A stretch of 64,000 nucleotides of DNA from Arctopsyche grandis. Lineage: Eukaryota > Arthropoda > Insecta > Trichoptera > Hydropsychidae. The notes under the pieces were generated by a model. It worked only from the letters and a program-made list of their open reading frames with translations. It made no database searches and was not told where the DNA came from. Location of the stretch: assembly GCF_051622035.1 (NCBI RefSeq), contig NC_135356.1, positions 20,449,685-20,513,684 on the forward strand, written 5' to 3'. Position numbers and translations under genes: made by a program. Of the stretch, positions 1,151 through 60,122 are shown one piece after another. Every line of letters starts with the position of its first letter. Position 1 is the stretch's first letter.

Positions 1151-1577
1151 CATATCCAATTTTTTGATATTAAAATAAAATATGCTTACTTATGTACATA
1201 CATATGTATGTAGAAAGGCTTTCTCGCAAATTCGTTGTATATTGAATTAGTTGATTGTATCAGTTTGTTCATAGATGGTGCTATTGTATTGTAGTTTAAT
1301 TTTATTATAATATTTAGTACTAAGGTACAAAAGTTTAACTATAGGTGTCGCCTTGGAGCAACCTGTAATTTTTTTCTATCCTCCTTCTGGTGCCATCTTA
1401 TCAATCTCTGATAAATCATCACCAATAATGTTTCTTTTCTTCAGGTCATGTACAGGCACTATTCCATCTCCAAGTGAATTGGTCTTCTGAATCAGACTGA
1501 TATTAAGACTACTAACTCGTGAGGCTTTTTCTTTGGTGAGTTGTATCTAACAACTGTATGGCTTCTAAATACATATG

Positions 1578-15478: not shown

Positions 15479-18400
15479 ATGTTCAACGTAAGTAGATACA
15501 ATGCTCTAAACAGATATATTCCGTTATATATATGTATATATGTACATGTTTTTGTATTACTATTAATTTTATTCTAAATTCAAAATTTTCATATTCAGGG
15601 TTTGGTTGGATTGGTTTCTGGAGGCGCGTCCGGTCTTGGACGAGCAACGGTCGCTAAACTCATCAAGGAAGGTGGGAAAGTTATAGCTTGCGATTTGCCG
15701 TCGTCTCCAGGAAGTGAATTGTCCAAAGAATTTGGCGATAAAGTTGTATTTGTACCGACAGATGTAAGTGAACTTTGACCAACCTTATATAATACGAACG
15801 GCATTGCATTAACCGAAAAGTGATTCCCCAGACTGTAACTTTGTACAAGGTCTATTTTTGAAATAATCCATATCCAGTAAGTTCTTCTGCTTTCCAGAGA
15901 ATTTTGGTCAAGTTTTGGGAAAACATTAGACTTATATTAGATCAGACCACACCGGGTGACTTGTGAGTAATTGAGTCGGTGACTTTGTTGCGCGACCAGA
16001 TGAATATATGCAGTTGTATGGAGCATGCTATACCAGGCAAATCGTTGGTTGCCCAAGCTATAAAATCACCCGACTAGTGAGATCGGTTGCCAGCGTTCGA
16101 TCAGAACCATTCCTCAAAATGTATAATGTTGTATTGAGGGGTGCCACACTCTAAAGAAACAACTATGAATATGTGTCACTATCGTCACATATTAAAAACT
16201 TTTACAGGTATTAATGAACGGATTCTTAGTCACTTCTGGTTGCCCAAGTTGGGTGACTAAGAGTGACCACGAGCAATTCCGATTGGGCAACAAAGTCACC
16301 GACCAAGTTGCTTGCAAGTCACCTGGTGTGGTTCGGCTCTTACAGTAATAGTATGGTGTTTTTTTCTCATGAAATTATGCTTTACTAATTTTATTCGACA
16401 TCCGTTAAAGGTATAGGAATCAAACATGTACATGAATGTATTGTTACGTAGGGGTGGGTGGAGGATCCAAGTAAAAGGCCAAAGTCGTTTCACAGCATTT
16501 ATTGATGACTAGCTGTATTACCCGGCTTCGCTCAGTGTTTATAATATAAACCGCTTAAACATGACTAAGCTAATTTAATTAAAAAAAAAAAAAAATTAAA
16601 AAAAAATTTAAAAATTAAAAAAAAAAATAAAAAAAAAATAAAAAAAAAATCAAAAAAAAAATTAAAAAAAAAATTAAAAAAAAAATAAAAAAAAAATAAA
16701 AAAAAAATAAAAAAAAAATTAAAAATTTTTTTTTTAAAAAATCAAAAAAAAAATCAAAATTTTTTTTGCCTTCTAGGGCTTCGCCCTCGGCGCCCCCCTG
16801 AGCCTTTGCCTTCTAGGGCTTCGCCCCTCCACGCCCCATGAGCAATTGCCGTTTAGGGCGTCGCCCCCCTTAGTTAATGCCTTTTAGGGCTTCGCCCCTC
16901 CGCACCCCCATGATTAAATGCCGTCTAGGGCTTCGCCCCCCTTAGTTAATGCCTTTTAGGGCTTCGCCCCCCGCGCCCCCAAGATTAATTGCCGTTTAGG
17001 GCTTCGCCCCCCTTAGTTAATGCCTTTTAGGGCTTCGCCCCTCCGCGCCCCCATGATTAAATGCCGTCTAAGGCTTCGCTCCCAAGACCATGAGGCTGGG
17101 CCCCCCGGGCCCCCTTCGGGGCCCCACGGGGCTGCGCCCCTTGTGGCGCCCCCTTTTGAGCCTCATGGGGCTGCGCCCCATGAGGCTGGGCCCCCCGGGC
17201 CCCCTTCGGGGCCCCACGGGGCTGCGCCCCTTGTGGCGCCCCCTTTTGAGCCCCATGGGGCTGCGCCCCATGAGGCTGGGCCCCCCGCGCCCCCTTCGGG
17301 GCTTCACGGGGCTGCGCCCCTTGTGGCACCCCCTTTTGAGCCCCATGGGGCTGCGCCCCATGAGGCTGGGCCCCCCGGGCCCCCTTCGGGGCCCCACGGG
17401 GCTGCGCCCCTTGTGGCGCCCCCTTTTGAGCCCCACGGGGCTGCGCCCCTTGTGGCGCCCCTGGCGGGGCCCCATGAAACTACTCGCTTTGCGCCCCCGC
17501 GGGGGTGAATCCATTGAATCGAAAAAAACAAATCGGCGCCCATGGATCGAAAAAAAAAAAAATCGAATCACGTGTTCGATGACGTCACCGATCTACGGAC
17601 GACGACGACGACGACGACGAAGACGACGAAGACGACGACGACGACGACCAAGGATATTTACATACAAAGTCTCTTTCCAAATTATAGATTAGATTAAGGA
17701 GATACACACACTGGCAGTGCTCAGTCCAGAATGTCTTGATATCGCCTAAGTACCGCCTTATAAGGGGCAGGTCTCTCAGGACATCTTCGACGTCTGATTT
17801 GTTTACCTATTGTTATGGTCACGTACTCGGATATGTATTCCCACGACATTCGGTCCCACGGTACCAAGGTATCGGTCAATTCTGAGAAGAGACCAATAAT
17901 GGCCAACTCGGTCGCCATTATTTAGCCTACATGCACTTAGTTTGCCGATAATCCTCGAAACCAATTATAACAGTCACACAGTCACTGGGATGCTACCCGA
18001 CCTAATCCGATTGCAACTAACCGGCGGCTCTTTTTAGTATACGTAACAGTATAATAAAACTCTATTAGTGACTAACAACTAAAAATCTCATAAATAATAC
18101 ATATGTATTGGGTTGATCAACACTTTTTATTGAGGAGATAATTACAGTTCTATTACCTGTGCGGTAAAATACACTGAAAGAAGATAAATAAAAACGTTGT
18201 AACATATTAGATAATGAGATTCATATGTGTAATCACTTTGCTTGTCTTTAGGTAACATCCGAGACCGACGTTGAAAATGCAATTAAAATCGCCAAAGAAA
18301 AGTTTGGACGTTTGGATGTCGCCGTTAATTGTGCAGGAGTCGGCTCTGCTTGTAGGATATACAATTTCAAACGCAATCAAGCTCATAACTTGGAGGAGTT

Positions 18401-21400
18401 TAGCACTGTTATAAAGGTACAGGCGGACCTCAACTTTCGCACATTCGACTTTCGCACAATTCGCTATTTCGCACATTTTTAAAAAATCGTTTTTTTTTTT
18501 TTTTTGGTGATAATGCAAAAATGTTTGTTTGCGTGCAATTCTTTCCCTCTCCTCCATTCCCTGTTGCACTATGAAATGCGTATGAACGAGCCCGTACTGT
18601 GAAAAGTGTTACATCCTGCACGGCATAATGATGGATGAAATCTTTGTATTATTGGATAAGTGACCAAAATCAAAAAAAATCCCTCTGAGTACTTCAATAA
18701 TTCAAGCTAGAGCTCTTAGTTTGCATAAGGATTGGAAGGCTAGACTAAAAGAAGATTCTAACACGGTGTTTCATGCAAGTCACGGCTGGTTTTCAAATTT
18801 TAAAACAAGATATTCTTTACACAATATTAAATTCACTGGAGAATCAGCTGATGCGGATGAAGATGCTGCAAAAGACTTTATTTCCTCATTGTCCAAAATT
18901 ATTGAAGATGGTGAATATTCCTCTAGTCAAATATTCAATGTAGATGAGACTGGTTTATTTTGGAAGAAGATGCCTAATCGTACATTCTTACCAAAGGAAG
19001 AATCAGTTGCCCCTGGTCATAAACCTTCTAAAAACCGATTGCTTCTTGGTGGAAATTTAGCTGGTGATTTAAAATTGATGCCAATGTTAATTTATCAAGC
19101 AGAAAATCCTAGAGCATTGAAAGGGAAAGATAAAAATTGCTTCCAGTCATTTGGAAATCAAATAAAAAAGCCTGGGTTACTGCTTTAATATTTAAAGATT
19201 GGTTCACTTCACATTTCGTACCAGCAGTAAAGCAATATTGTGAAGTTAATAATTTACCATTTTAAATATTATTAATCTTAGATAATGCTACAGGACTCTC
19301 ATACAACCCATGGACCAAACAGTGATAGCTACGTTTAAACGATATTATATGAGGTCGATAATGAATCAGGCCATCAAGACAACTGACATGGAAGGTGGGC
19401 CCACATTAAAAGATTTCTGGAGGAATTATAACATATGGAACGCAATAAACAATATTGGAGACGCGTGGGCTGAAATAAAAGAGTCAACAATGAAAGGTTC
19501 ATGGAGAAAACTATGCCCACAAATGATGGGTGATATAAATTTTGATGAAACTCCAGAAACTATCACACTTGAAATAGTTCACTTAATGAACGAACTTAAC
19601 CTAGATGTTAACATTGAAGATATTAATGAGATGATTGAATCTCATTCTGAACCCATGACCAATGAATTTCTAATGGACCGACAAGAGAACGAGAATTATA
19701 TACATATTGAAAGTGAGGAAGAAGAACCAGAAGAAATCATTAATACCTTAACTATAAAAAATATGAACGAAGCTTTTACGCATCTCGAAAAGTTTTTGAA
19801 CATTATGGAAGACTGTGATCCCAATGGAGAACGAATATCTCAAGTACGTAGGGCTATTCATAAGAGTACTGTATGTTACAGAACACTATGAAGAAAAAAA
19901 AATTGTCATATTCAACTAACTCTTGACAAGTTCATTACGAGATTATAATTTGCCGTGCCTGAATACGATATTTTCCACCTAAGTGAGTGTAGATTATCGG
20001 ATGTTATTTTAACATATGTATCTGGCAGCCTTCTCTTAATTTGAATGTGATGTGTGTGTGGAATCTTAATCTACTCTCTTCCATTTGGGCCTCGCTGTGA
20101 TTTTTTTTTTACTATTTTTCTTTTGCAGAATGTAAAACTAAGAATAGGATTTAAGTATTTTATTTACGTGTTATTTTTCTTTTGTTTTTATTTTTTATTT
20201 TATCGTGTTTTTCTGCTTTTGCTTTTTTGCTTTTTATTTTATGTATTTACTTTACTTTTTAATGTATATAAATAATTTTTATTTAATACATACATTTTTT
20301 GCTTTTTTTTTTTACATCCCTCTACTTTCGAACATTTAACTTTCGCACACATTTTCAGGAACCAATTATGTGCGAAAGTTGAGGTCCGCCTGTATATTAT
20401 ATTAATTTAACAGTGTCAATTTTTTATTTAATTGCAATGTGATGTATTTTTATGGAATTCGTTGCAGGTGAATATTCTAGGTACGTTCAATGTTGCTCGA
20501 TTGGCCGCTGGACTTATCGGACAGAATGCAGCCAACACTGACGGTCAGCGAGGAGTTATCATCAATACGGCCAGCATTGCAGCTTATGATGGACAGATTG
20601 GACAGACGGCTTACTCGGCATCGAAGGCCGGTGTCGTAGGAATGACTTTACCCATGGCTAGGGATTTAGCTGTTCGCGGAATCAGAGTGGTCACCATTGC
20701 TCCCGGTATGACATTTTTTTTCATATATGAAACAAAGACTTTACTTTTATGTTGGATCTTATCTGAATTTTTGTTACGGTTCATGCCAATTTGCAATATA
20801 TTATTAATTCTTTATAACCGCTTATATAATATAAACTATTATCAAATTACTAAGTTGAAGATTAAAAAAAAAAATAGCAATATAATGAAATTGCCTGTAT
20901 AACGAATAAATACTGTAATAAATGTCTCATAGTCCTATTTTCCGGTACAAAAACATTTGAAATTATATTTTATCATTATTATGTTAATATTATATTTCTA
21001 AAAACTAGACTTAAATTATAACTATTAAAATTTCAAAAAAATAAAATTTTTTGTGCATAGTTTATTATTGATTACTCAAGTGTGGATTTTTAAATGTTTC
21101 TATAATAATTTCGAAAGAGACTAAATGCAGAGAAATGTTATATAACATAACATTAAATTAAATGTTATGTAATATTATTATAACATTTCTCTGTTTATAT
21201 GTGTGTTTGTTTGTTTGGTAAAATCCATAACGTTCAATTCATTAAAGCGAGGCTTGTCATTGTTTGAAATCAGTTTTAAATCAATGTATGAACTCTCGGG
21301 AATAAGTGTGATATTTTTAGCATAGTTTTTCTTTGGTTTCAAATTTATTTAAAAGGATGTTGATTATTGACTGATTCTTCGACTAATCCGTACAAATTAA

Positions 21401-44211: not shown

Positions 44212-44666
44212 TCTAATATATAATTTCGAAAGAGACTTTGTAAGTATGTAATGTTGATTGGTAACATCGAAAACAAATCAAAGTTTCTATCACGACGATT
44301 CGATATGGTTTCGATAGACGGCATTAAATCATGGGGGCGCGGAGGGGCGAAGCCCTAAAAGGCATCAGCTAAGGGGGGCGAAGCCCTAAACGGCAATTGC
44401 TCATGGGGGCGTGGATGGGCGAAGCCCTAGAAGGCAAAGGCTCAGGGGGGCGCCGAGGGCGAAGCCCTAGAAGGCAAAAAAAATTGATTTTTTTAAATTT
44501 TTTTTTGTTTTTTTTTATTTATTTTTTATTTTTATTTTTATTTTTTTTTTTAATTTTTTAAATTTTCTTTTAATTTTTTTTTTTAAATTAAATGTTTACT
44601 ATTAGCTTAGTCATGTTTAAGCGGTTTATATTATAAATACTGAGCGAAGCCGGGTAATACAGCTAG
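44212..44666 (+). mobile_element. Helitron-like non-autonomous element, copy 2
   Basis: Begins A|TCTAATATATAATTTCG and ends GAGCGAAGCCGGG, TAATACAG, CTAG|T. The last GC-rich stretch can fold as a short hairpin with a GAA loop. The 5' and 3' ends match copy 1 at 16509-17693 in the opposite orientation. The inside has three GGGCGAAGCCCTA-type minisatellite units and a long T-rich tract. It is 455 bp with no helicase coding. Confidence 0.7.
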
Positions 44667-49386: not shown

Positions 49387-50807
49387 ATGAGTAAGATTTT
49401 GATCATCGAACCCTTCTATGGAGGGTCTCACAAGAAGTTGATCGACACTATAACATCGAGTGGGTACTTGTTGTTGTTTTTGACGTATTATATTTTAGAT
49501 GCTTTGAATTCGATCAATAATGTCTTTCAGATATGCATCCGAATGATTACACTCTGATTACTATGACGGCTAAGAAGTGGCACTGGCGTGCAAGATCCAG
49601 CAGTTTGTACATATCGCTACAAATTCCCGATGTGAAAGACTACAAAATATTATTTTGCAGCTCCGTTTTGAGCTTGGCCGAATTGATCGGGATGTGTCCA
49701 GGCTTGTCGAGGCTGAAGAAAATCGTGTACTTTCACGAAAATCAAATCGTATATCCAAAGCAATCGATTAAAGACCGAGACTACCAATACGGCTTCAATC
49801 AAATCACTACTTGGTATGTATTATTTTTATTTTAGAATATATTATATATATATATTTTTTGATAGTACGGTTTGATTTTGTTTCTTTTTTTTAGCTTGAC
49901 CGCCGATCTTGTAGTGTTCAACTCGACCTACAATATGAATTCTTTTCTAGACAACATTGACAAATTCATTAAAATAATGCCAGACTATAAGGTTAAGAAT
50001 GTAGCCGATTTGATTAAACCCAAGTCATCTGTATTGTATTTTCCGATCAACTTTTCGATCATCAACGGGGTCAAAATGAAGGGTCGAAAAGCTACCAACG
50101 TCAATGATGTGGTTCATATTGTTTGGCCGCATCGATGGGAATACGACAAGAATCCGGAATTGTTTTTTCACACTTTGTACCGTTTGAAGGATGAAAATGT
50201 CAATTTTAAGGTTTGTCAATCCGTCATTTCGAGCATATCATGTTGAATGTGTTTTACTAAAGTTGATTTTTTCAGGTGAGCGTTCTTGGTGAGGCTTTCA
50301 CCGAGATACCTGATATATTTTTGGAAGCCCACGAAGCGTTGAAAAATCATATACATCACTTTGGATTCGTTCAGAGCACTGAAAACTTTTATTCCATATT
50401 GATAGATTCCGATATTGTGGTGTCGACGGCAGATCATGAATTTTTCGGTGTATCAATGTGAGATTGTTTGTTTGTTTTTTATGAGTTGTGTGAGCTATGA
50501 GTATCATAATTTGAGTTTGTTCCGTCAGACGAGATTTAAATAACATATTGTTTTGATTTTTGATTATAATTTCAGGCTGGAAGCTGTAAAGTGTGGTTGC
50601 TTTCCGTTGGCTCCAAACAGTTTGGTCTATCCGGAAATCTACCCAAAGGAATGCCTCTTTAAATCTAACGACGAGCTCTTTGCCAAACTGAAATCGTGGT
50701 GTAGTAGTCCGAATAAATTGAAAGATTTAAGACAACGTTTTGATATTGGTATCGATCAGTTCGATACGAAGGTTCTTTTGCCAAAATATTTGTCGTTATT
50801 AAGTTAA
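49387..50807 (+). CDS. GTDC1: tRNA-queuosine mannosyltransferase (GTDC1/QTMAN)
   Basis: Five exons: 49387-49459, 49531-49813, 49895-50210, 50276-50457 and 50576-50807, giving 361 residues. Introns are 65-118 bases, all GT..AG. The intron 1 donor is GTGGGT, chosen because it alone keeps frame. The protein is a GT-B glycosyltransferase with the N-terminal GTDC1 domain: IEPFYGGSH at 7-15, AKKWHWRAR at 38-46, YFHENQ at 91-96, WPHRWEYDK near 196-204, and HEFFGV at 278-283 in the nucleotide-sugar-binding half. The vertebrate orthologue has been shown to add mannose to queuosine of cytosolic tRNA-Asp, and function here is inferred from orthology. It is about 100 residues shorter than human GTDC1, which carries a long low-complexity insertion in the middle. 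An AATAAA at 50974 is a plausible poly(A) signal. It is the only gene in the right half. Confidence 0.93.
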
Positions 50808-52333: not shown

Positions 52334-53040
52334 GCTTTTCCACAATATTGTTCAGTGAAAAAGAGAATGATAATATCAGTTTTGATATAAAATCATAGAC
52401 GACTCTAGTAAAATTTATATTTTACACCGGTGAAAAGTATTTTACGAGGAAGTTGATATCATATAATATTTTTGGATAGCTTTTCCACAATATTGTTTAA
52501 TGAAAAAGAGAATAATAATATTAGTTTTGATTTAAAATCATAGATGTCTTTAGTGAAATTTATTCTTTACACTGGTGAAAAGTATTTTACGTGCAAGTTA
52601 AGATCATACAAGAGTTTTCAAAAGGGACTCGAACCGGAACCGAAACGAAAACCGAAAAAAAGCTGTTATTTCTGCTGGAATGAACTCCGGAACCGAATCG
52701 ATATTTTTTCTATGAATAAATAAATGTGATTTTGTCTATATTTTGGTCACATTAGAATCCGCCTTTTCACACGCTCGGAAAGTACTCTTCTTTGACTTTT
52801 TTATTATGTGATCACCTAAAGTTATTGCGAACAGAAAATTGGAACTACACGGCTATGATTGTTTTTGGCGAATCGGAACGAAAATTGGAACCAAAAATAT
52901 AGCGGTCTTGGAAAGTTTTTCAAAATATTGTTCCGCGAAAAATAGGATAATATTAGTTTCAATTTAAATACATAGATGTATGTAGTAAAATTTATATTTC
53001 ACACTGGTGAAAAGTATTTTACGAGAAATTGAATATATGT
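52334..53040. repeat. Three-copy tandem repeat of about 145 bp, interrupted by an element
   Basis: Units begin near 52334, 52480 and 52910 with CTTTTCCACAATATTG (TTTTTCAAAATATTG in the third) and share TTTACAC(C/T)GGTGAAAAGT and ATTTTACG. Between units 2 and 3, at about 52623-52902, lies sequence of the CAGGGACCC-type hAT family: GGAACCGAAACGAAAACCG, and AGAATCCGCCTTTTCACACG as in the 7.6 kb copy. So an array was split by a transposon. Confidence 0.65.
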
Positions 53041-53221
53041 AATAAAATCGTTTTTTGACAACAGCTTCGTAATTAATATTATCAACGGCTACATAGGATG
53101 TCGAAAGTAAAGTTTTCCTGCAGCGAATGTGTACATAGATAGGTAGGTATGTTATATGCATAATGACATATTTAAGCTACAATAAAAAGAAAAAGAATTT
53201 TGTTATGAAATTCTGAAAATT

Positions 53222-53687
53222 TATTCCAACCATTGGCAATCGTGAAGCCAATATGGACATATGGCATACAACTGTGGGGATGCAATAAGCCATCCAATAT
53301 CGAAAAAATGCAAAGATGTCAAAACCAGTTTTTGAGGATTATCACCGATGCATATCGCTTCGTCACAAATGAAGAGATCCACAAGGACCTTAAAATCAAA
53401 AAAGTAAAAGAAGTCATCCGAGAATGCGCCGGGAGGCACGAGTTGCACCGTCACCCTAACATAGAAGCGATGCAGCTATTGGGTACAACTAACCAACAGA
53501 GGCGTTTAAAGCGAAAAAAGCCTCACGAATTGGTGTTCTGAATGTGAGAGATTCAGAAGCCCAATTCACAATTTTGGGGACGGAGTGATGATTCCGTAGT
53601 GCCCGTATATGATCTGAAGAGCAACGATATCGCTGGTGATGATTTATCCGGAATCGATAAGATGGCACCAAAAAAAAAAAAAAAAAA
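53222..53687 (+). pseudogene. 5'-truncated jockey-like LINE with poly(A)
   Basis: The frame at 53233-53541 reads the end of a jockey-type reverse transcriptase: KPIWTYGIQLWG, MQRCQNQFLRIITDAYRFVTNEEIHKDL (in parts), and a short basic tail ending HELVF. A 3' untranslated stretch follows, then a run of 18 A at 53670-53687. A 5'-truncated copy ending in poly(A) is the usual product of LINE target-primed reverse transcription. Only about 100 of roughly 900 residues remain, without catalytic motifs. The poly(A) abuts the first unit of the 6 kb satellite. Confidence 0.8.
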
Positions 53688-56600
53688 CTATTTATAGTGC
53701 CATCTATGGGCGATTAAAGAAACTATTTAATGCGCCATCAATGGGCGATTAGTGAAACTATTTAAAGCGCCATTTATGGGCGATTAGAGAAACTATTTAA
53801 AGCGCCATCTATGGACGATTAGTGAAACTATTAAAAGCGCCATCTTGCGACGGATAGTGAAACTATTTATAGCGCCATCTATGGGCGATTAAAGAAACTA
53901 TTTAAAGCGCCATCTAAGGGCGATAAGTGAACCTATTTAAAGCGCCATCTATGAACGATTAGAGAAACTATTAAAAGCGCCATCTAGCGACGGATAGTGA
54001 AACTATTTATAGCGCCATCTATGGGCGATTAAAGAAACTATTTAATGCGCCATCTATGGGCGATTAGTGAAACTATTAATAGCGCCATCTATGGGCGATT
54101 AAAGAAACTATTTAAAGCGCCATCTAAGGGCGATAAGTGAACCTATTTAAAGCGCCATCTATGAACGATTAGAGAAACTATTAAAAGCGCCATCTAGCGA
54201 CGGATAGTGAAACTATTTATAGTGCCATCTATGGGCGATTAGAGAAACTATTAAAAGCGCCATCTAGCGACGGATAGTGAAACTATTTATAGTGCCATCT
54301 ATGGGCGATTAAAGAAACTATTTAAAGCGCCATCTATGGGCGATTAGAGAAACTATTAAAAGCGCCATCTTGCGACGGATAGTGAAACTATTTATAGCGC
54401 CATCTATGGGCGATTAAAGAAACTATTTAATGCGCCATCTATGGGCGATTAGTGAAACTATTAAAAGCGCCATCTAAGGGCGATAAGTGAACCTATTTAT
54501 AGCGCCATATATGGGCGATAAATAAAACTATTTATAGCGCCATCTATGGGCGATTAGAGAAACTATTAAAAGCGCCATCTTGCGACGGATAGTGAAACTA
54601 TTTATAGCGCCATCTATGGGCGATTAAAGAAACTATTAATAGCGCCATCTATGGGCGATTAGAGAAACTATTAAAAGCGCCATCTTGCGACGGATAGTGA
54701 AACTATTTATAGCGCCATCTATGGGCGATTAAAGAAACTATTTAATGCGCCATCTATGGGCGATTAGTGAAACTATTAAAAGCGCCATCTAAGGGCGATA
54801 AGTGAACCTATATGTGCCATCTATGGGCGATTAGAGAAACTATTAAAAGCGCCATCTAGCGACGGATAGTGAAACTATTTATAGTGCCATCTATGGGCGA
54901 TTAAAGAAACTATTTATAGTGCCATCTATGGGCGATTAAAGAAACTATTTATAGCGCCATCTATGGGCGATTAGAGAAACTATTAAAAGCGCCATCTAGC
55001 GACGGATAGTGAAACTATTTATAGCGCCATCTATGGGCGATTAAAGAAACTATTTATAGTGCCATCTATGGGCGATTAAAGAAACTATTTAATGCGCCAT
55101 CAATGAGCGATTAGTGAAACTATTTAAAGCGCCATTTATGGGCGATTAGAGAAACTATTTAAAGCGCCATCTATGGACGATTAGTGAAACTATTAAAAGC
55201 GCCATCTTGCGACGGATAGTGAAACTATTTATAGCGCCATCTATGGGCGATTAAAGAAACTATTTAAAGCGCCATCTAAGGGCGAGAAGTGAACCTATTT
55301 AAAGCGCCATCTATGAACGATTAGAGAAACTATTAAAAGCGCCATCTAGCGACGGATAGTGAAACTATTTATAGCGCCATCTATGGGCGATTAAAGAAAC
55401 TATTAAAAGCGCCATCTTGCGACGGATAGTGAAACTATTTATAGCGCCATCTATGGGCGATTAAAGAAACAATTTATAGCGCCATCTATGGGCGATTAGA
55501 GAAACTATTAAAAGCGCCATCTAGCGACGGATAGTGAAACTATTTATAGCGCCATCTATGGGCGATTAAAGAAATTATTAATAGCGCCATCTATGGGCGA
55601 TTAAAGAAACTATTTAAAGCGCCATCTAAGAGCGATAAGTGAACCTATTTAAAGCGCCATCTATGAACGATTACAGAAACTATTAAAAGCGCCATCTAGC
55701 GACGGATAGTGAAACTATTTATAGCGCCATCTATGGGCGATTAAAGAAACAATTTATAGCGCCATCTATGGGCGATTAGAGAAACTATTAAAAGCGCCAT
55801 CTAGCGACGGATAGTGAAACTATTTATAGCGCCATCTATGGGCGATTAAAGAAACTATTTATAGTGCCATCTATGGGCGATTAAAGAAACTATTTAATGC
55901 GCCATCAATGAGCGATTAGTGAAACTATTTAAAGCGCCATTTATGGGCGATTAGAGAAACTATTTAAAGCGCCATCTATGGACGATTAGTGAAACTATTA
56001 AAAGCGCCATCTTGCGACGGATAGTGAAACTATTTATAGCGCCATCTATGGGCGATTAAAGAAACTATTTAAAGCGCCATCTAAGGGCGATAAGTGAACC
56101 TATTTAAAGCGCCATCTATGAACGATTAGAGATACTATTAAAAGCGCCATCTAGCGACGGATAGTGAAACTATTTATAGCGCCATCTATGGGCGATTAAA
56201 GAAACTATTTAATGCGCCATCTATGGGCGATTAGTGAAACTATTTAAAGCGCCATCTAAGGGCGATAAGTGAACCTATTTATAGCGCCATATATGGGCGA
56301 TAAATAAAACTATTAATAGCGCCATCTATGGGCGATTAGAGAAACTATTAAAAGCGCCATCTTGCGACGGATAGTGAAACTATTTAAAGCGCCATCTAGC
56401 GACGGATAGTGAAACTATTTATAGCGCCATCTTGCGACGGATAGTGAAACTATTTATAGCGCCATCTATGGGCGATTAAAGAAACTATTTATAGCGCCAT
56501 CTATGGGCGATTAAAGAAACTATTAAAAGCGCCATCTTGCGACGGATAGTGAAACTATTTATAGCGCCATCTATGGGCGATAAAAGAAACAATTTATAGC

Positions 56601-59600
56601 GCCATCTATGGGCGATTAGAGAAACTATTAAAAGCGCCATCTAGCGACGGATAGTGAAACTATTTATAGCGCCATCTATGGGCGATTAAAGAAACTATTA
56701 ATAGCGCCATCTATGGGCGATTAAAGAAACTATTTAAAGCGCCATCTAAGGGCGATAAGTGAACCTATTTAAAGCGCCATCTATGAACGATTAGAGAAAC
56801 TATTAAAAGCGCCATCTTGCGACGGATAGTGAAACTATTTATAGCGCCATCTATGGGCGATTAAAGAAACTATTAATAGCGCCATCTATGGGCGATTAGA
56901 GAAACTATTAAAAGCGCCATCTTGCGACGGATAGTGAAACTATTTATAGCGCCATCTATGGGCGATTAAAGAAACTATTTATAGCGCCATCTATGGGCGA
57001 TTAAAGAAACTATTTAAAGCGCCATCTAAGGGCGATAAGTGAACCTATTTATAGCAACATATATGGGCGATAAGTAAAACTATTTATAGCGCCATCTATG
57101 AACGATTAGAGAAACTATTAAAAGCGCCATCTTGCGACGGATAGTGAAACTATTTATAGCGCCATCTATGGGCGATTAGAGAAACTATTAAAAGCGCCAT
57201 CTAGCGACGGATAGTGAAACTATTTATAGTGCCATCTATGGGCAATTAGAAAAACTATTAAAAGCGCCATCTTGCGACGGATAGTGAAACTATTTAAAGC
57301 GCCATCTATGGGCGATTAAAGATACTATTTAATGCGCCATCTATGGGCGATTAGTGAAACTATTAATAGCGCCATCTATGGGCGATTAAAGAAACTATTT
57401 AAAGCGCCATCTAAGGGCGATAAGTGAACCTATTTATAGCGCCATATATGGGCGATAAGTAAAACTATTTATAGCGCCATCTATGAACGATTAGAGAAAC
57501 TATTAAAAGCGCCATCTTGCGACGGATAGTGAAACTATTTATAGCGCTATCTATGGGCGATTAGAGAAACTATTAAAAGCGCCATCTTGCGACGGATAGT
57601 GAAACTATTTAAAGCGCCATCTATGGGCGATTAGAGAAACTATTAAAAGCGCCATCTTGCGACGGATAGTGAAACTATTTATAGCGCCATCTATGGGCGA
57701 TTAAAGAAACTATTTATAGCGCCATCTATGGGCGATTAAAGAAACTATTAAAAGCGCCATCTTGCGACGGATAGTGAAACTATTTATAGCGCCATCTATG
57801 GGCGATTAAAGAAACAATTTATAGCGCCATCTATGGGCGATTAGAGAAACTATTAAAAGCGCCATCTAGCGACGGATAGTGAAACTATTTATAGCAACAT
57901 ATATGGGCGATAAGTAAAACTATTTATAGCGCCATCTATGAACGATTAGAGAAACTATTAAAAGCGCCATCTTGCGACGGATAGTGAAACTATTTATAGC
58001 GCCATCTATGGGCGATTAAAGAAACTATTAATAGCGCCATCTATGGGCGATTAGAGAAACTATTAAAAGCGCCATCTTGCGACGGATAGTGAAACTATTT
58101 ATAGCGCCATCTATGGGCGATTAAAGAAACTATTTATAGCGCCATCTATGGGCGATTAAAGAAACTATTTAAAGCGCCATCTAAGGGCGATAAGTGAACC
58201 TATTTATAGCAACATATATGGGCGATAAGTAAAACTATTTATAGCGCCATCTATGAACGATTAGAGAAACTATTAAAAGCGCCATCTTGCGACGGATAGT
58301 GAAACTATTTATAGCGCCATCTATGGGCGATTAAAGAAACAATTTATAGCGCCATCTATGGGCGATTAGAGAAACTATTAAAAGCGCCATCTAGCGACGG
58401 ATAGTGAAACTATTTATAGTGCCATCTATGGGCGATTAGAAAAACTATTAAAAGCGCCATCTTGCGACGGATAGTGAAACTATTTAAAGCGCCATCTATG
58501 GGCGATTAAAGATACTATTTAATGCGCCATCTATGGGCGATTAGTGAAACTATTAATAGCGCCATCTATGGGCGATTAAAGAAACTATTTAAAGCGCCAT
58601 CTAAGGGCGATAAGTGAACCTATTTATAGCGCCATATATGGGCGATAAGTAAAACTATTTATAGCGCCATCTATGAACGATTAGAGAAACTATTAAAAGC
58701 GCCATCTTGCGACGGATAGTGAAACTATTTATAGCGCTATCTATGGGCGATTAGAGAAACTATTAAAAGCGCCATCTTGCGACGGATAGTGAAACTATTT
58801 AAAGCGCCATCTATGGGCGATTAAAGAAACTATTTATAGCGCCATCTATGGGCGATTAGAGAAACTATTAAAAGCGCCATCTAGCGACGGATAGTGAAAC
58901 TATTTATAGCGCCATCTATGGGCGATTAGAGAAACTATTAAAAGCGCCATCTTGCGACGGATAGTGAAACTATTTATAGCGCCATCTATGGGCGATTAGA
59001 GAAACTATTAAAAGCGCCATCTTGCGACGGATAGTGAAACTATTTATAGCGCCATCTATGGGCGATTAGAGAAACTATTAAAAGCGCCATCTAGCGACGG
59101 ATAGTGAAACTATTTATAGCGCCATCTATGGGCGATTAAAGAAACTATTTATAGTGCCATCTATGGGCGATTAAAGAAACTATTTAAAGCGCCATCTATG
59201 GGCGATTAAAGAAACTATTTAAAGCGCCATCTAAGGGCGATAAGTGAACCTATTTATAGCGCCATATATGGGCGATAAATAAAACTATTTATAGCGCCAT
59301 CTATGGGCGATTAGAGAAACTATTAATGTGCCATCTTGCGACGGATAGTGAAACTATTTATAGCGCCATCTATGGGCGATTAAAGAAACTATTTATAGCG
59401 CCATCTATGGGCGATTAAAGAAACTATTTAAAGCGCCATCTAAGGGCGATAAGTGAACCTATTTCAAGCGCCATCTATGAACGATTAGAGAAACTATTAA
59501 AAGCGCCATCTAGCGACGGATAGTGAAACTATTTATAGCGCCATCTATGGGCGATTAAAGAAACTATTTTATGCGCCATCTATGGGCGATTAGTGAAACT

Positions 59601-59690
59601 ATTTAAAGCGCCATTTATGGGCGATTAGAGAAACTATTTAAAGCGCCATCTATGGGATATTAGTGAAACTATTTATAGCGACATCTATGA
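53688..59690. repeat. 6 kb satellite of about 35-bp units
   Basis: About 170 tandem copies of a unit of about 35 bp, for example AGCGCCATCTATGGGCGATT followed by AAAGAAACTATTTAT. At least five unit types recur: GGGCGATTAAAG, GGGCGATTAGAG, AGCGACGGATAGTG or TGCGACGGATAGTG, AAGGGCGATAAGTGAACC, and ATGAACGATTAGAG. They occur in preferred orders, so the array has higher-order structure. Larger duplications are visible: the GCGCTATCTATGGG variant at 57544 recurs at 58734, 1190 bp (34 units) later, and GCGCCATCAATGAG at about 55093 recurs 805 bp (23 units) later. The constant part GCGCCATCT is the most conserved segment. There is no coding frame of note and the array has no unique spacers, so it is not CRISPR. 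Confidence 0.97.
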
Positions 59691-60122
59691 TCAATTTTTT
59701 GTACATAAGAACTAAAAATTACAATGCAATTATTAATATACAACACAATGGCTACATCTATGGACAAAATAGTACAATCAACCAATTCGATATATGAGCT
59801 GTTATATTTAAAAGTGGCGGAAGTCCAATTTTCAGTTCCAAAAACACTATTTCTGTTTGACTTCACAAATTGTTACCATTTGTTTTAATTCGATGTGTCC
59901 AAAATTTCGAAAAAGCCGAATAAACGTATTATAGACCATCAGTACTTTTAAATATTGTAAAACGTAAAACATTATATTTAATTTTTTGCGAAATATTTCT
60001 CAAATTGAAGAAAAGTAGACTTTTGCCACTTTAAAATATAACAGCTCATATGTACTTATGTATGCATGTATGTACTACGAATTTGCGAGAAACAAATTTG
60101 AAATTATATTCGAATAATGTGG
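59691..60122. other. AT-rich intergenic DNA right of the satellite
   Basis: The unit pattern stops at about 59690 and AT-rich sequence follows. AACAGCTCATAT at about 60039 echoes, inverted, ATATGAGCTGTTATATTTAA at about 59793. No gene was identified. Confidence 0.5.

What the first reader, a model, noticed from the sequence alone, without database searches (positions are those of the whole stretch)
53688..59690. 6 kb satellite whose unit carries a CTCF-core-like motif
On the minus strand the commonest unit reads CCCATAGATGGCGCT. The widely used CTCF core, CCASYAGRKGGCRSY, fits at 13 of 15 positions, and AGATGGCGC is the most conserved part across all unit types in the array. About 170 tandem units in 6 kb would make an unusually dense cluster of potential insulator-protein sites. 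The sequence match is direct; binding, insulation or any chromatin role is inference. GCGCCATCT-type motifs also occur singly in insect genomes, so the motif may have been amplified for other reasons.
Basis: partly seen in the sequence, partly recalled or inferred. Interest (0 to 1): 0.78.

Follow-up and report, generated by a model that had tools for sequence, protein, structure and literature searches.

The report
Satellite repeat full of CTCF-like sites
A short DNA unit resembling the landing site of the genome-folding protein CTCF has been copied hundreds of times into a few arrays on one large contig of what looks like an insect genome; whether CTCF really lands there is untested, but the arrays would make a natural test of how CTCF works in insects.

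Summary
The array is real: 172 head-to-tail monomers of about 35 bp. The CTCF resemblance is stronger than claimed: with the fly CTCF matrix (recalled, not fetched) 149 of 172 monomers pass p=1e-5, all on one strand, against 0.17% of shuffled monomers. The host encodes a CTCF orthologue. All 177 exact hits of a diagnostic 15-mer in 475.7 Mb are accounted for by four arrays on one contig; the two nearest lie 347.5 kb apart with sites facing each other. Array 1 abuts, at a related motif, a dispersed repeat (at least 39 other copies) whose motifs are on the whole weaker CTCF matches. In honey-bee ChIP-seq peaks, taken with a vitellogenin antibody, the top motifs contain the same core (PMC8924143), so some protein probably reads it. 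Against a CTCF role: no occupancy data; variation does not follow CTCF's information profile; an AT-rich block has lower entropy in this array. Verdict: ordinary satellite growth carrying an unusually strong, oriented CTCF motif; binding plausible, insulation inference. Nearest known: DXZ4 and CTCF-bound human VNTRs.

The parts
53688..59689 (-). Array 1: 172 monomers of about 35 bp; most carry a CTCF-like 15-mer on the minus strand (commonest CCCATAGATGGCGCT)
53670..53687 (+). run of 18 A at the left edge of the array; aligns with a shorter internal A-run in sibling copy B, so probably not a fresh retrotransposon tail
53209..53541 (+). 110-aa open frame that looks like the C-terminal end of a Jockey-type retrotransposon ORF (recalled resemblance only; Pfam gave no family)
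53515..53673 (+). left flank, 72% identical over 164 aligned columns to sibling copy B (window 1530-1385, minus)
59678..59794 (+). right flank: block of a dispersed repeat, colinear with copy B (76%, 117 columns) and with 39 other scored matches in the genome; begins inside the last monomer core (GCGACATCTATG)
59792..60051 (.). inserted short element with inverted ends of about 42 bp, interrupting the dispersed repeat
60070..60092 (+). continuation of the dispersed repeat (ACGAATTTGCGAGAAA) after that insertion
1220..1530 (-). sibling copy B: same left flank and same dispersed repeat without the array (33-52 bp in its place, depending on where the alignment is cut); carries two CTCF-like motifs of 16.1 and 11.6 bits

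Best explanation
A small satellite family, confined to one contig as far as an exact 15-mer shows, built of a 35-bp unit whose core CCCATAGATGGCGCT is a strong fly-type CTCF site. Array 1 lies against a dispersed non-coding repeat exactly at a related motif; I infer that a repeat-borne motif was amplified there (or a ready array recombined into it) and then grew by unequal exchange and local duplication. The dispersed consensus reads TGACGC or TGTCGC where the arrays read TGGCGC, the form that fits CTCF best. Because the host has CTCF, I expect it to occupy at least some units in open chromatin, making the array a dense one-orientation CTCF platform or sink. Shown: array, motif strength, four arrays, orientation, flanking element, CTCF gene. 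Inferred: direction of origin, binding, any chromatin effect.
For: Fly matrix p<1e-5 in 149 of 172 monomers of array 1, 90 of 94 of array 2, 114 of 129 anchored in array 3, 12 of 17 anchored at array 4; shuffled tandem monomers 0.17% of 3,000. Best CTCF-finger hit on C9: 54% over fingers 1-8, E 3.4e-77, next 1.7e-50 at 37%; recognition positions of fingers 3 and 4 kept (positions assigned from recall). Right flank homologous from inside the last monomer core to 39 other scored genome matches. Exact internal repeats up to 406 bp at 1,155 bp lag. Top motifs of honey-bee ChIP peaks contain the core or part of it, about 300 of 790 peaks each, two of three with a C2H2 zinc-finger motif as best known match (PMC8924143, section 25 and passages); AGCGCCATCT is in 135 of 172, 76 of 94 and 96 of 129 monomers of arrays 1-3. 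A published CTCF site, ATGCAGCTAGATGGCGCTC, shares CTAGATGGCGCT with one unit type (PMC5739101, passage).
Against: No occupancy or Hi-C data. Changes in the core do not follow CTCF information (rho -0.16 for two arrays; -0.27, p 0.33, for three). Core changes cost less CTCF score than random ones (4.29 against 5.51 bits, P 0.018), but this is not specific: the true placement ranks 14 of 70. The honey-bee motifs TyAGCGCCATCT and the longer form, with their flanks, fit 0 monomers of arrays 1-3, and that paper assigns them to vitellogenin. Dispersed motifs are not all weak: the consensus second site scores 17.8 bits and 7 of 19 second-site matches pass 1e-5. Flanks of arrays 2 and 3 do not match the dispersed repeat, so origin from it rests on array 1 and modest monomer similarity (P 0.0035-0.0065). 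Matrices are recalled. CTCF loss has limited global effect in Drosophila (PMC7880997, title, start of abstract and passages).
Confidence: 0.6

Rival explanations
1. A purely passive satellite: the unit grew by slippage and unequal exchange, and the CTCF match is a coincidence of a GC-richer core in an AT-rich unit; no protein of note binds it.
For: The AT-rich block GAAACTATT has lower entropy than the core in array 1; variation does not follow the CTCF information profile; exact internal duplications up to 406 bp show ordinary growth; an unrelated GC-rich repeat in the window also gives CTCF-matrix hits.
Against: Median 20.4 bits of a maximum of 27.2; no shuffled monomer of 3,000 reached that median; the core is the least variable 10-column block over three arrays (26 of 162 changes, P about 0.004 under a uniform null that ignores relatedness); the same core is in top motifs of honey-bee ChIP peaks.
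Confidence: 0.3
2. A working insulator or loop anchor: arrays 2 and 1 on C2 recruit CTCF and, with sites facing each other over 347.5 kb, hold a loop or domain boundary.
For: Array 2 sites are on + (87 of 87 hits of 16 bits or more) and array 1 sites on -, with array 2 to the left, i.e. convergent; a modelling paper reports convergent CTCF motif preference in Drosophila and dCTCF contacts peaking at 500 kb (PMC5462476, passages).
Against: Orientation of two arrays can be chance (one in four); arrays 3 and 4 face away from each other about 6.4 kb apart; fly CTCF loss has limited architectural effect (PMC7880997); nothing here measures contacts.
Confidence: 0.12
3. The core is a site for another protein: YY1/Pho, another C2H2 factor, vitellogenin as claimed in the honey bee, or a transposase that recognises the repeated motif of the dispersed element.
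For: GCCAT, the recalled Pho/YY1 core, is in 166 of 172 monomers; honey-bee vitellogenin ChIP peaks are enriched for motifs with AGCGCCATCT; the motif family occurs several times within the dispersed element, as subterminal transposase sites do (recalled); the genome has very many C2H2 frames (307 matches).
Against: A recalled YY1 matrix passes p<1e-4 in only 27 of 172 monomers, nearly all of one type; the honey-bee motif with its flanks fits 0 monomers. I defined no autonomous partner and no terminal inverted repeats of the dispersed element. The bee peaks may reflect a co-bound factor (inference).
Confidence: 0.2

Closest known systems
DXZ4 macrosatellite (primate X)
   Same: Tandem array with CTCF binding; beyond New World monkeys sequence conservation is limited to promoter and CTCF site (PMC3218863, abstract read)
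   Different: 3-kb GC-rich unit, transcribed, CTCF-bound on the inactive X by experiment; here a 35-bp unit, chromosome type unknown, binding untested
CTCF/BORIS-bound human simple tandem repeats and the SVA VNTR
   Same: Short head-to-tail units, some inside a transposable element, whose tandem order creates staggered CTCF sites (PMC5007689, passages and section 6 read)
   Different: Human, GC-rich, occupancy measured; the SVA VNTR is bound mainly by BORIS in vivo; here an AT-rich unit in an unrelated lineage without occupancy data
Retrotransposon-borne CTCF sites of mammals
   Same: A repeat family carries and multiplies CTCF motifs (PMC3368268, passages read)
   Different: Dispersal by retrotransposition; here tandem amplification to 16-172 monomers per array, with dispersed relatives on the whole weaker matches
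Honey-bee AGCGCCATCT ChIP motif
   Same: The 10-mer AGCGCCATCT is shared with most monomers (PMC8924143 section 25)
   Different: Dispersed peaks, attributed by its authors to vitellogenin; flanking positions of the motif differ from the monomers

Membership tests
Satellite/minisatellite DNA family | head-to-tail units, several arrays, partial homogenisation within an array | tested here: met
   172, 94, 129 anchored and 16 consecutive monomers; arrays share at most 2 exact types pairwise
Satellite/minisatellite DNA family | restriction to one chromosome | tested here: met
   counts of the exact 15-mer on C2 add up to all 177 genome hits; diverged units without this 15-mer were not searched
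CTCF-binding tandem repeat (DXZ4/VNTR type) | units match the CTCF matrix far above shuffles | tested here: met
   matrices recalled, fly columns all sum to 1902; a paper's consensus AGGTGGCG differs from the unit's AGATGGCG at one position
CTCF-binding tandem repeat (DXZ4/VNTR type) | host has CTCF with core-reading fingers | tested here: met
   the match ends at a stop codon, probably an exon end; fingers 9-11 not located
CTCF-binding tandem repeat (DXZ4/VNTR type) | CTCF occupancy in cells | not testable with these tools
   no ChIP or CUT&RUN data for this genome
CTCF-binding tandem repeat (DXZ4/VNTR type) | CTCF site preserved more than the rest of the unit | tested here: inconclusive
   least variable 10 columns over three arrays (P about 0.004, uniform null) but no fit to CTCF information and not unique in array 1
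Insulator/loop anchor | boundary or convergent loop in Hi-C | not testable with these tools
   only motif orientation known
Satellite derived from a transposable element | array colinear with a dispersed element on its flanks, empty copies elsewhere | tested here: inconclusive
   met for array 1 (copy B and the 20 copies fetched of 39 others lack an array in the stretch seen); flanks of arrays 2 and 3 not similar; array 4 not tested
YY1/Pho site array | units match YY1/Pho matrix | tested here: not met
   27 of 172 at p<1e-4 with a recalled vertebrate YY1 matrix; a Pho matrix was not tested

The most novel reading that the evidence does not exclude
Two large arrays, 94 and 172 monomers with same-strand CTCF sites, facing each other over 347.5 kb, form a super-strong convergent CTCF anchor pair in an insect-type genome: a repeat-borne motif, strengthened at the TGGCGC core and amplified, has created a loop or boundary whose strength scales with copy number.
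Probability: 0.1. Interest if true: 0.8.

Novelty: new variant of a known kind. Interest (0 to 1): 0.48.

Why it matters
If CTCF binds these arrays, this is a natural overdose of oriented CTCF sites in a lineage where CTCF's role in genome folding is disputed, and copy number could vary between individuals. It would let one ask directly whether many insect CTCF sites in a row make a boundary. It also suggests how a repeat-borne motif can become a strong site and be amplified locally rather than by transposition, and it offers hundreds of copies of the AGCGCCATCT motif, reported in honey-bee ChIP peaks, as a test-bed for what binds it.

Tried and rejected
Retrotransposon poly-A tail followed by a chance satellite: dropped, since homology to copy B continues on both sides of the array. 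Hairpin/dyad function of the core: the CGCCAT-ATGGGCG dyad is lost in the two unit types reading TTGCGACGG and TAGCGACGG, and folding is not exceptional (z -1.5, +0.7, -1.9; 16, 154 and 4 of 200 shuffles fold as well). RNA families or tRNAs: none found. Relatives in viral contigs: none. Higher-order repeat: no dominant lag. YY1: see rivals. Arrays 2 and 3 inside the same dispersed element: no flank similarity; array 3's left flank is another repeat, also found about 1.1 kb from array 2.

Literature: no paper on CTCF-motif satellites in insects appeared in searches (listings read). The motif-string search (555 papers, 40 listed) I first passed over by title; on re-checking I opened the honey-bee paper in it and searched again (5 and 10 papers, all listed). 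Its ChIP motif made me lower the passive rival from 0.35 to 0.30 and raise the other-protein rival from 0.18 to 0.20.

Unanswered genome-search runs (not completed): 4, 5, 14, 22, 27, 33, 37, 47, 48, 51, 52, 54, 56, 58, 62, 63, 66, 68, 70, 72, 75, 79, 82, 84, 87, 89, 93, 95, 98, 100, 102, 107, 112, 114. I repeated them, waiting with sleep scripts (and part of 115). Answered: 45, 77, 91, 104, 116.
Full report
What is there. The window lies at C2:20,449,685-20,513,684 of a 475.7-Mb assembly without an organism name; that it is an insect is recalled from gene and repeat style, not shown. From 53,688 to 59,689 it holds 172 monomers, 169 of exactly 35 bp, 39 types. TRF reports the array with periods 70 and 105. 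Internal exact duplications reach 406 bp at a lag of 1,155 bp, the mark of local duplication.

The motif. GCGCCATCT is exact in 142 of 172 monomers and absent from the rest of the window. With fly CTCF matrix MA0531.1 (recalled; all columns sum to 1902; a passage of PMC7880997 names this matrix as the fly motif) the median monomer scores 20.4 of 27.2 bits; 149 of 172 pass p=1e-5 and 168 pass 1e-4, none on the plus strand. With the recalled human matrix 135 pass 1e-5. Of 3,000 shuffled tandem monomers 0.17% pass 1e-5 on the fly matrix. Outside the array the window has 20 hits of at least 11.5 bits against a mean of 3.7 (largest 8) in 30 Markov simulations; 12 of the 20 lie in a GC-rich repeat at 16.8-17.5 kb (11) and its relative at 44.4 kb (1). 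A paper gives AGGTGGCG as the dCTCF consensus (PMC5462476 passages). A recalled YY1 matrix passes 1e-4 in 27 of 172.

The family. A 15-mer of the commonest unit has 118 forward and 59 reverse exact matches in the genome. These add up to four arrays on C2: array 1 (this window, 61), array 2 at 20,152,560-20,155,849, minus, 94 monomers (54), array 3 at 29,495,267-29,499,923, plus, 129 anchored monomers (57), and a small degenerate array 4 near 29,506,317-29,506,876, minus, 16 consecutive monomers, all different (5). 90 of 94, 114 of 129 and 12 of 17 anchored monomers pass p=1e-5 in arrays 2, 3 and 4. Arrays share at most two exact types pairwise, so each has evolved on its own, yet all four have nearly the same consensus. 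Diverged units without that 15-mer were not sought, so four arrays is a lower bound.

Orientation. In array 2 the CTCF-like sites are on the plus strand, in array 1 on the minus strand, and array 2 is to the left: they face each other across 347.5 kb. Arrays 3 and 4 face away from each other across about 6.4 kb. With two pairs this can be chance.

Where the unit comes from. Both flanks of array 1 match one stretch elsewhere in the window (copy B, 1530-1220 minus), where 33-52 bp stand in place of the array. The right-hand block (59,676-59,800) has 40 scored matches in the genome, itself included, on C1, C2 and C4-C13 (74 candidates, 40 scored); the others are 71-86% identical, the highest values on short matches; copy B is not among the 40. 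I aligned 20 of the 39 others with B: the shared repeat has a left edge that looked sharp by eye and carries CCATAGGTGCC, CCATAGGTGTCGCC and CCATAGATGACGCTA-type motifs; none of the 20 stretches (about 420 bp each) shows an array. Further right the copies agree only in part. The block in array 1 begins inside its last monomer core. Matches to the second motif score a median of 10.9 bits (19 copies, 7 past 1e-5; in L047 and L058, which lack it, the pattern fell on the third motif, and L052 has none), to the third 8.3 bits (20 copies, 1 past 1e-5); the consensus sites score 17.8 and 9.2. In the 15-mer CCCATAGATGRCGCT the change A to G at R raises the score from 11.7 to 22.2. So the dispersed motifs are on the whole weaker, not absent. 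Direct similarity of monomer and repeat consensus is modest (P 0.0035-0.0065 in 2,000 mononucleotide shuffles), and flanks of arrays 2 and 3 do not match the repeat. Either the array grew from the repeat's motif or a ready array recombined into it; I favour the first for array 1, without proof. A 110-aa frame left of the array resembles the end of a Jockey-type ORF (recalled); Pfam has no match.

CTCF in the host. A human CTCF finger query, identical to PDB 7w1m_H, has its best match on C9 at 54% over fingers 1-8, far ahead of other C2H2 frames; the match ends at a stop, probably an exon end. The translation keeps TSGE..R of finger 3, E.SK..R of finger 4 and D..K..R of finger 5; finger 6 reads QSNSL, like Drosophila (recalled) rather than human QSGTM (which positions read DNA is recalled). 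Fingers 9-11 were not located. CTCF was found in almost all arthropod transcript assemblies screened in PMC5094011 (passages).

An insect motif. In honey-bee ChIP-seq with an antibody to vitellogenin, the three top de novo motifs (TyAGCGCCATCT, TCAAGAGATGGCGC and nAkyrCCATCTnTyGrwwAn, 300-314 of 790 peaks each) contain the core or part of it, and two of them best match a C2H2 zinc-finger motif (PMC8924143, section 25 and passages). AGCGCCATCT is in 135 of 172, 76 of 94 and 96 of 129 monomers of arrays 1-3, but the first and third bee motifs with their flanks fit none. This says that some chromatin protein probably reads the core in insects; that it is CTCF is my inference, the authors say vitellogenin. 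A published CTCF site, ATGCAGCTAGATGGCGCTC, contains CTAGATGGCGCT of one unit type (PMC5739101, passage).

Is the core under selection? Within array 1, GAAACTATT has lower entropy, the core fewer tree changes. Pooled over arrays 1-3 (3 odd-length monomers of array 1 and 4 shifted monomers of array 3 left out), columns 11-20 carry 26 of 162 changes (P about 0.004 under a uniform null that ignores relatedness). Core changes cost less CTCF score than random ones (P 0.018), but changes do not track CTCF information (rho -0.27, p 0.33) and the sparing ranks 14 of 70 placements. That is weak, non-specific evidence.

Reading. The structure is ordinary satellite biology; the content is unusual. By analogy with CTCF-bound human VNTRs (PMC5007689, section 6) and DXZ4 (PMC3218863, abstract), binding to some units is plausible; 35-bp spacing may be too tight for every unit to be filled at once (inference). 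Fly CTCF loss has limited architectural effect (PMC7880997, title, start of abstract and passages), so a strong boundary should not be assumed. My estimates: CTCF occupies the array in some tissue 0.45; it forms a boundary or loop 0.1-0.15.

Noticed in passing
window 16581-17474 and 44333-44589: GC-rich tandem repeats (GGGCGAAGCCC type) beside A- or T-rich runs, in opposite orientation about 27 kb apart by their consensus units; GC-rich CTCF-matrix hits of similar letters also lie near C2:20,191,732-20,191,868 and 20,213,089-20,213,257.
   Followed up: partly
window 59792-60051: Short element with inverted ends of about 42 bp inserted into the dispersed repeat right of the array.
   Followed up: partly
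L039:6185-8000 and L071:1-596: Another tandem repeat lies between arrays 3 and 4 on C2, in the same orientation on both sides.
   Followed up: no
L039:1-1250: Left flank of array 3 is a repeat with a cysteine-rich frame; a copy also lies about 1.1 kb from array 2, 87% identical over 1,347 columns.
   Followed up: partly
window 52334-52651 and 52908-53044: A 145-bp near-tandem repeat with a third, diverged copy about 300 bp further on.
   Followed up: no
window 49866-50750 (end not determined): Exons matching tRNA-queuosine mannosyltransferase (QTMAN; later exons by recalled motifs only) about 3 kb left of the array.
   Followed up: partly
window 18664-19891: Tc5/DDE_1-type transposase fragments in two frames.
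   Followed up: no
C2:20,243,705 (+) in L029: A single strong CTCF-like site TCAATAGATGGCGCT (18.9 bits) outside any array, the only other GCGCCATCT in the 200 kb read around array 2.
   Followed up: no
genome G000, notably C5, C6, C8, C11, C13: Very many C2H2 zinc-finger frames, often close together (307 matches to the CTCF query).
   Followed up: no
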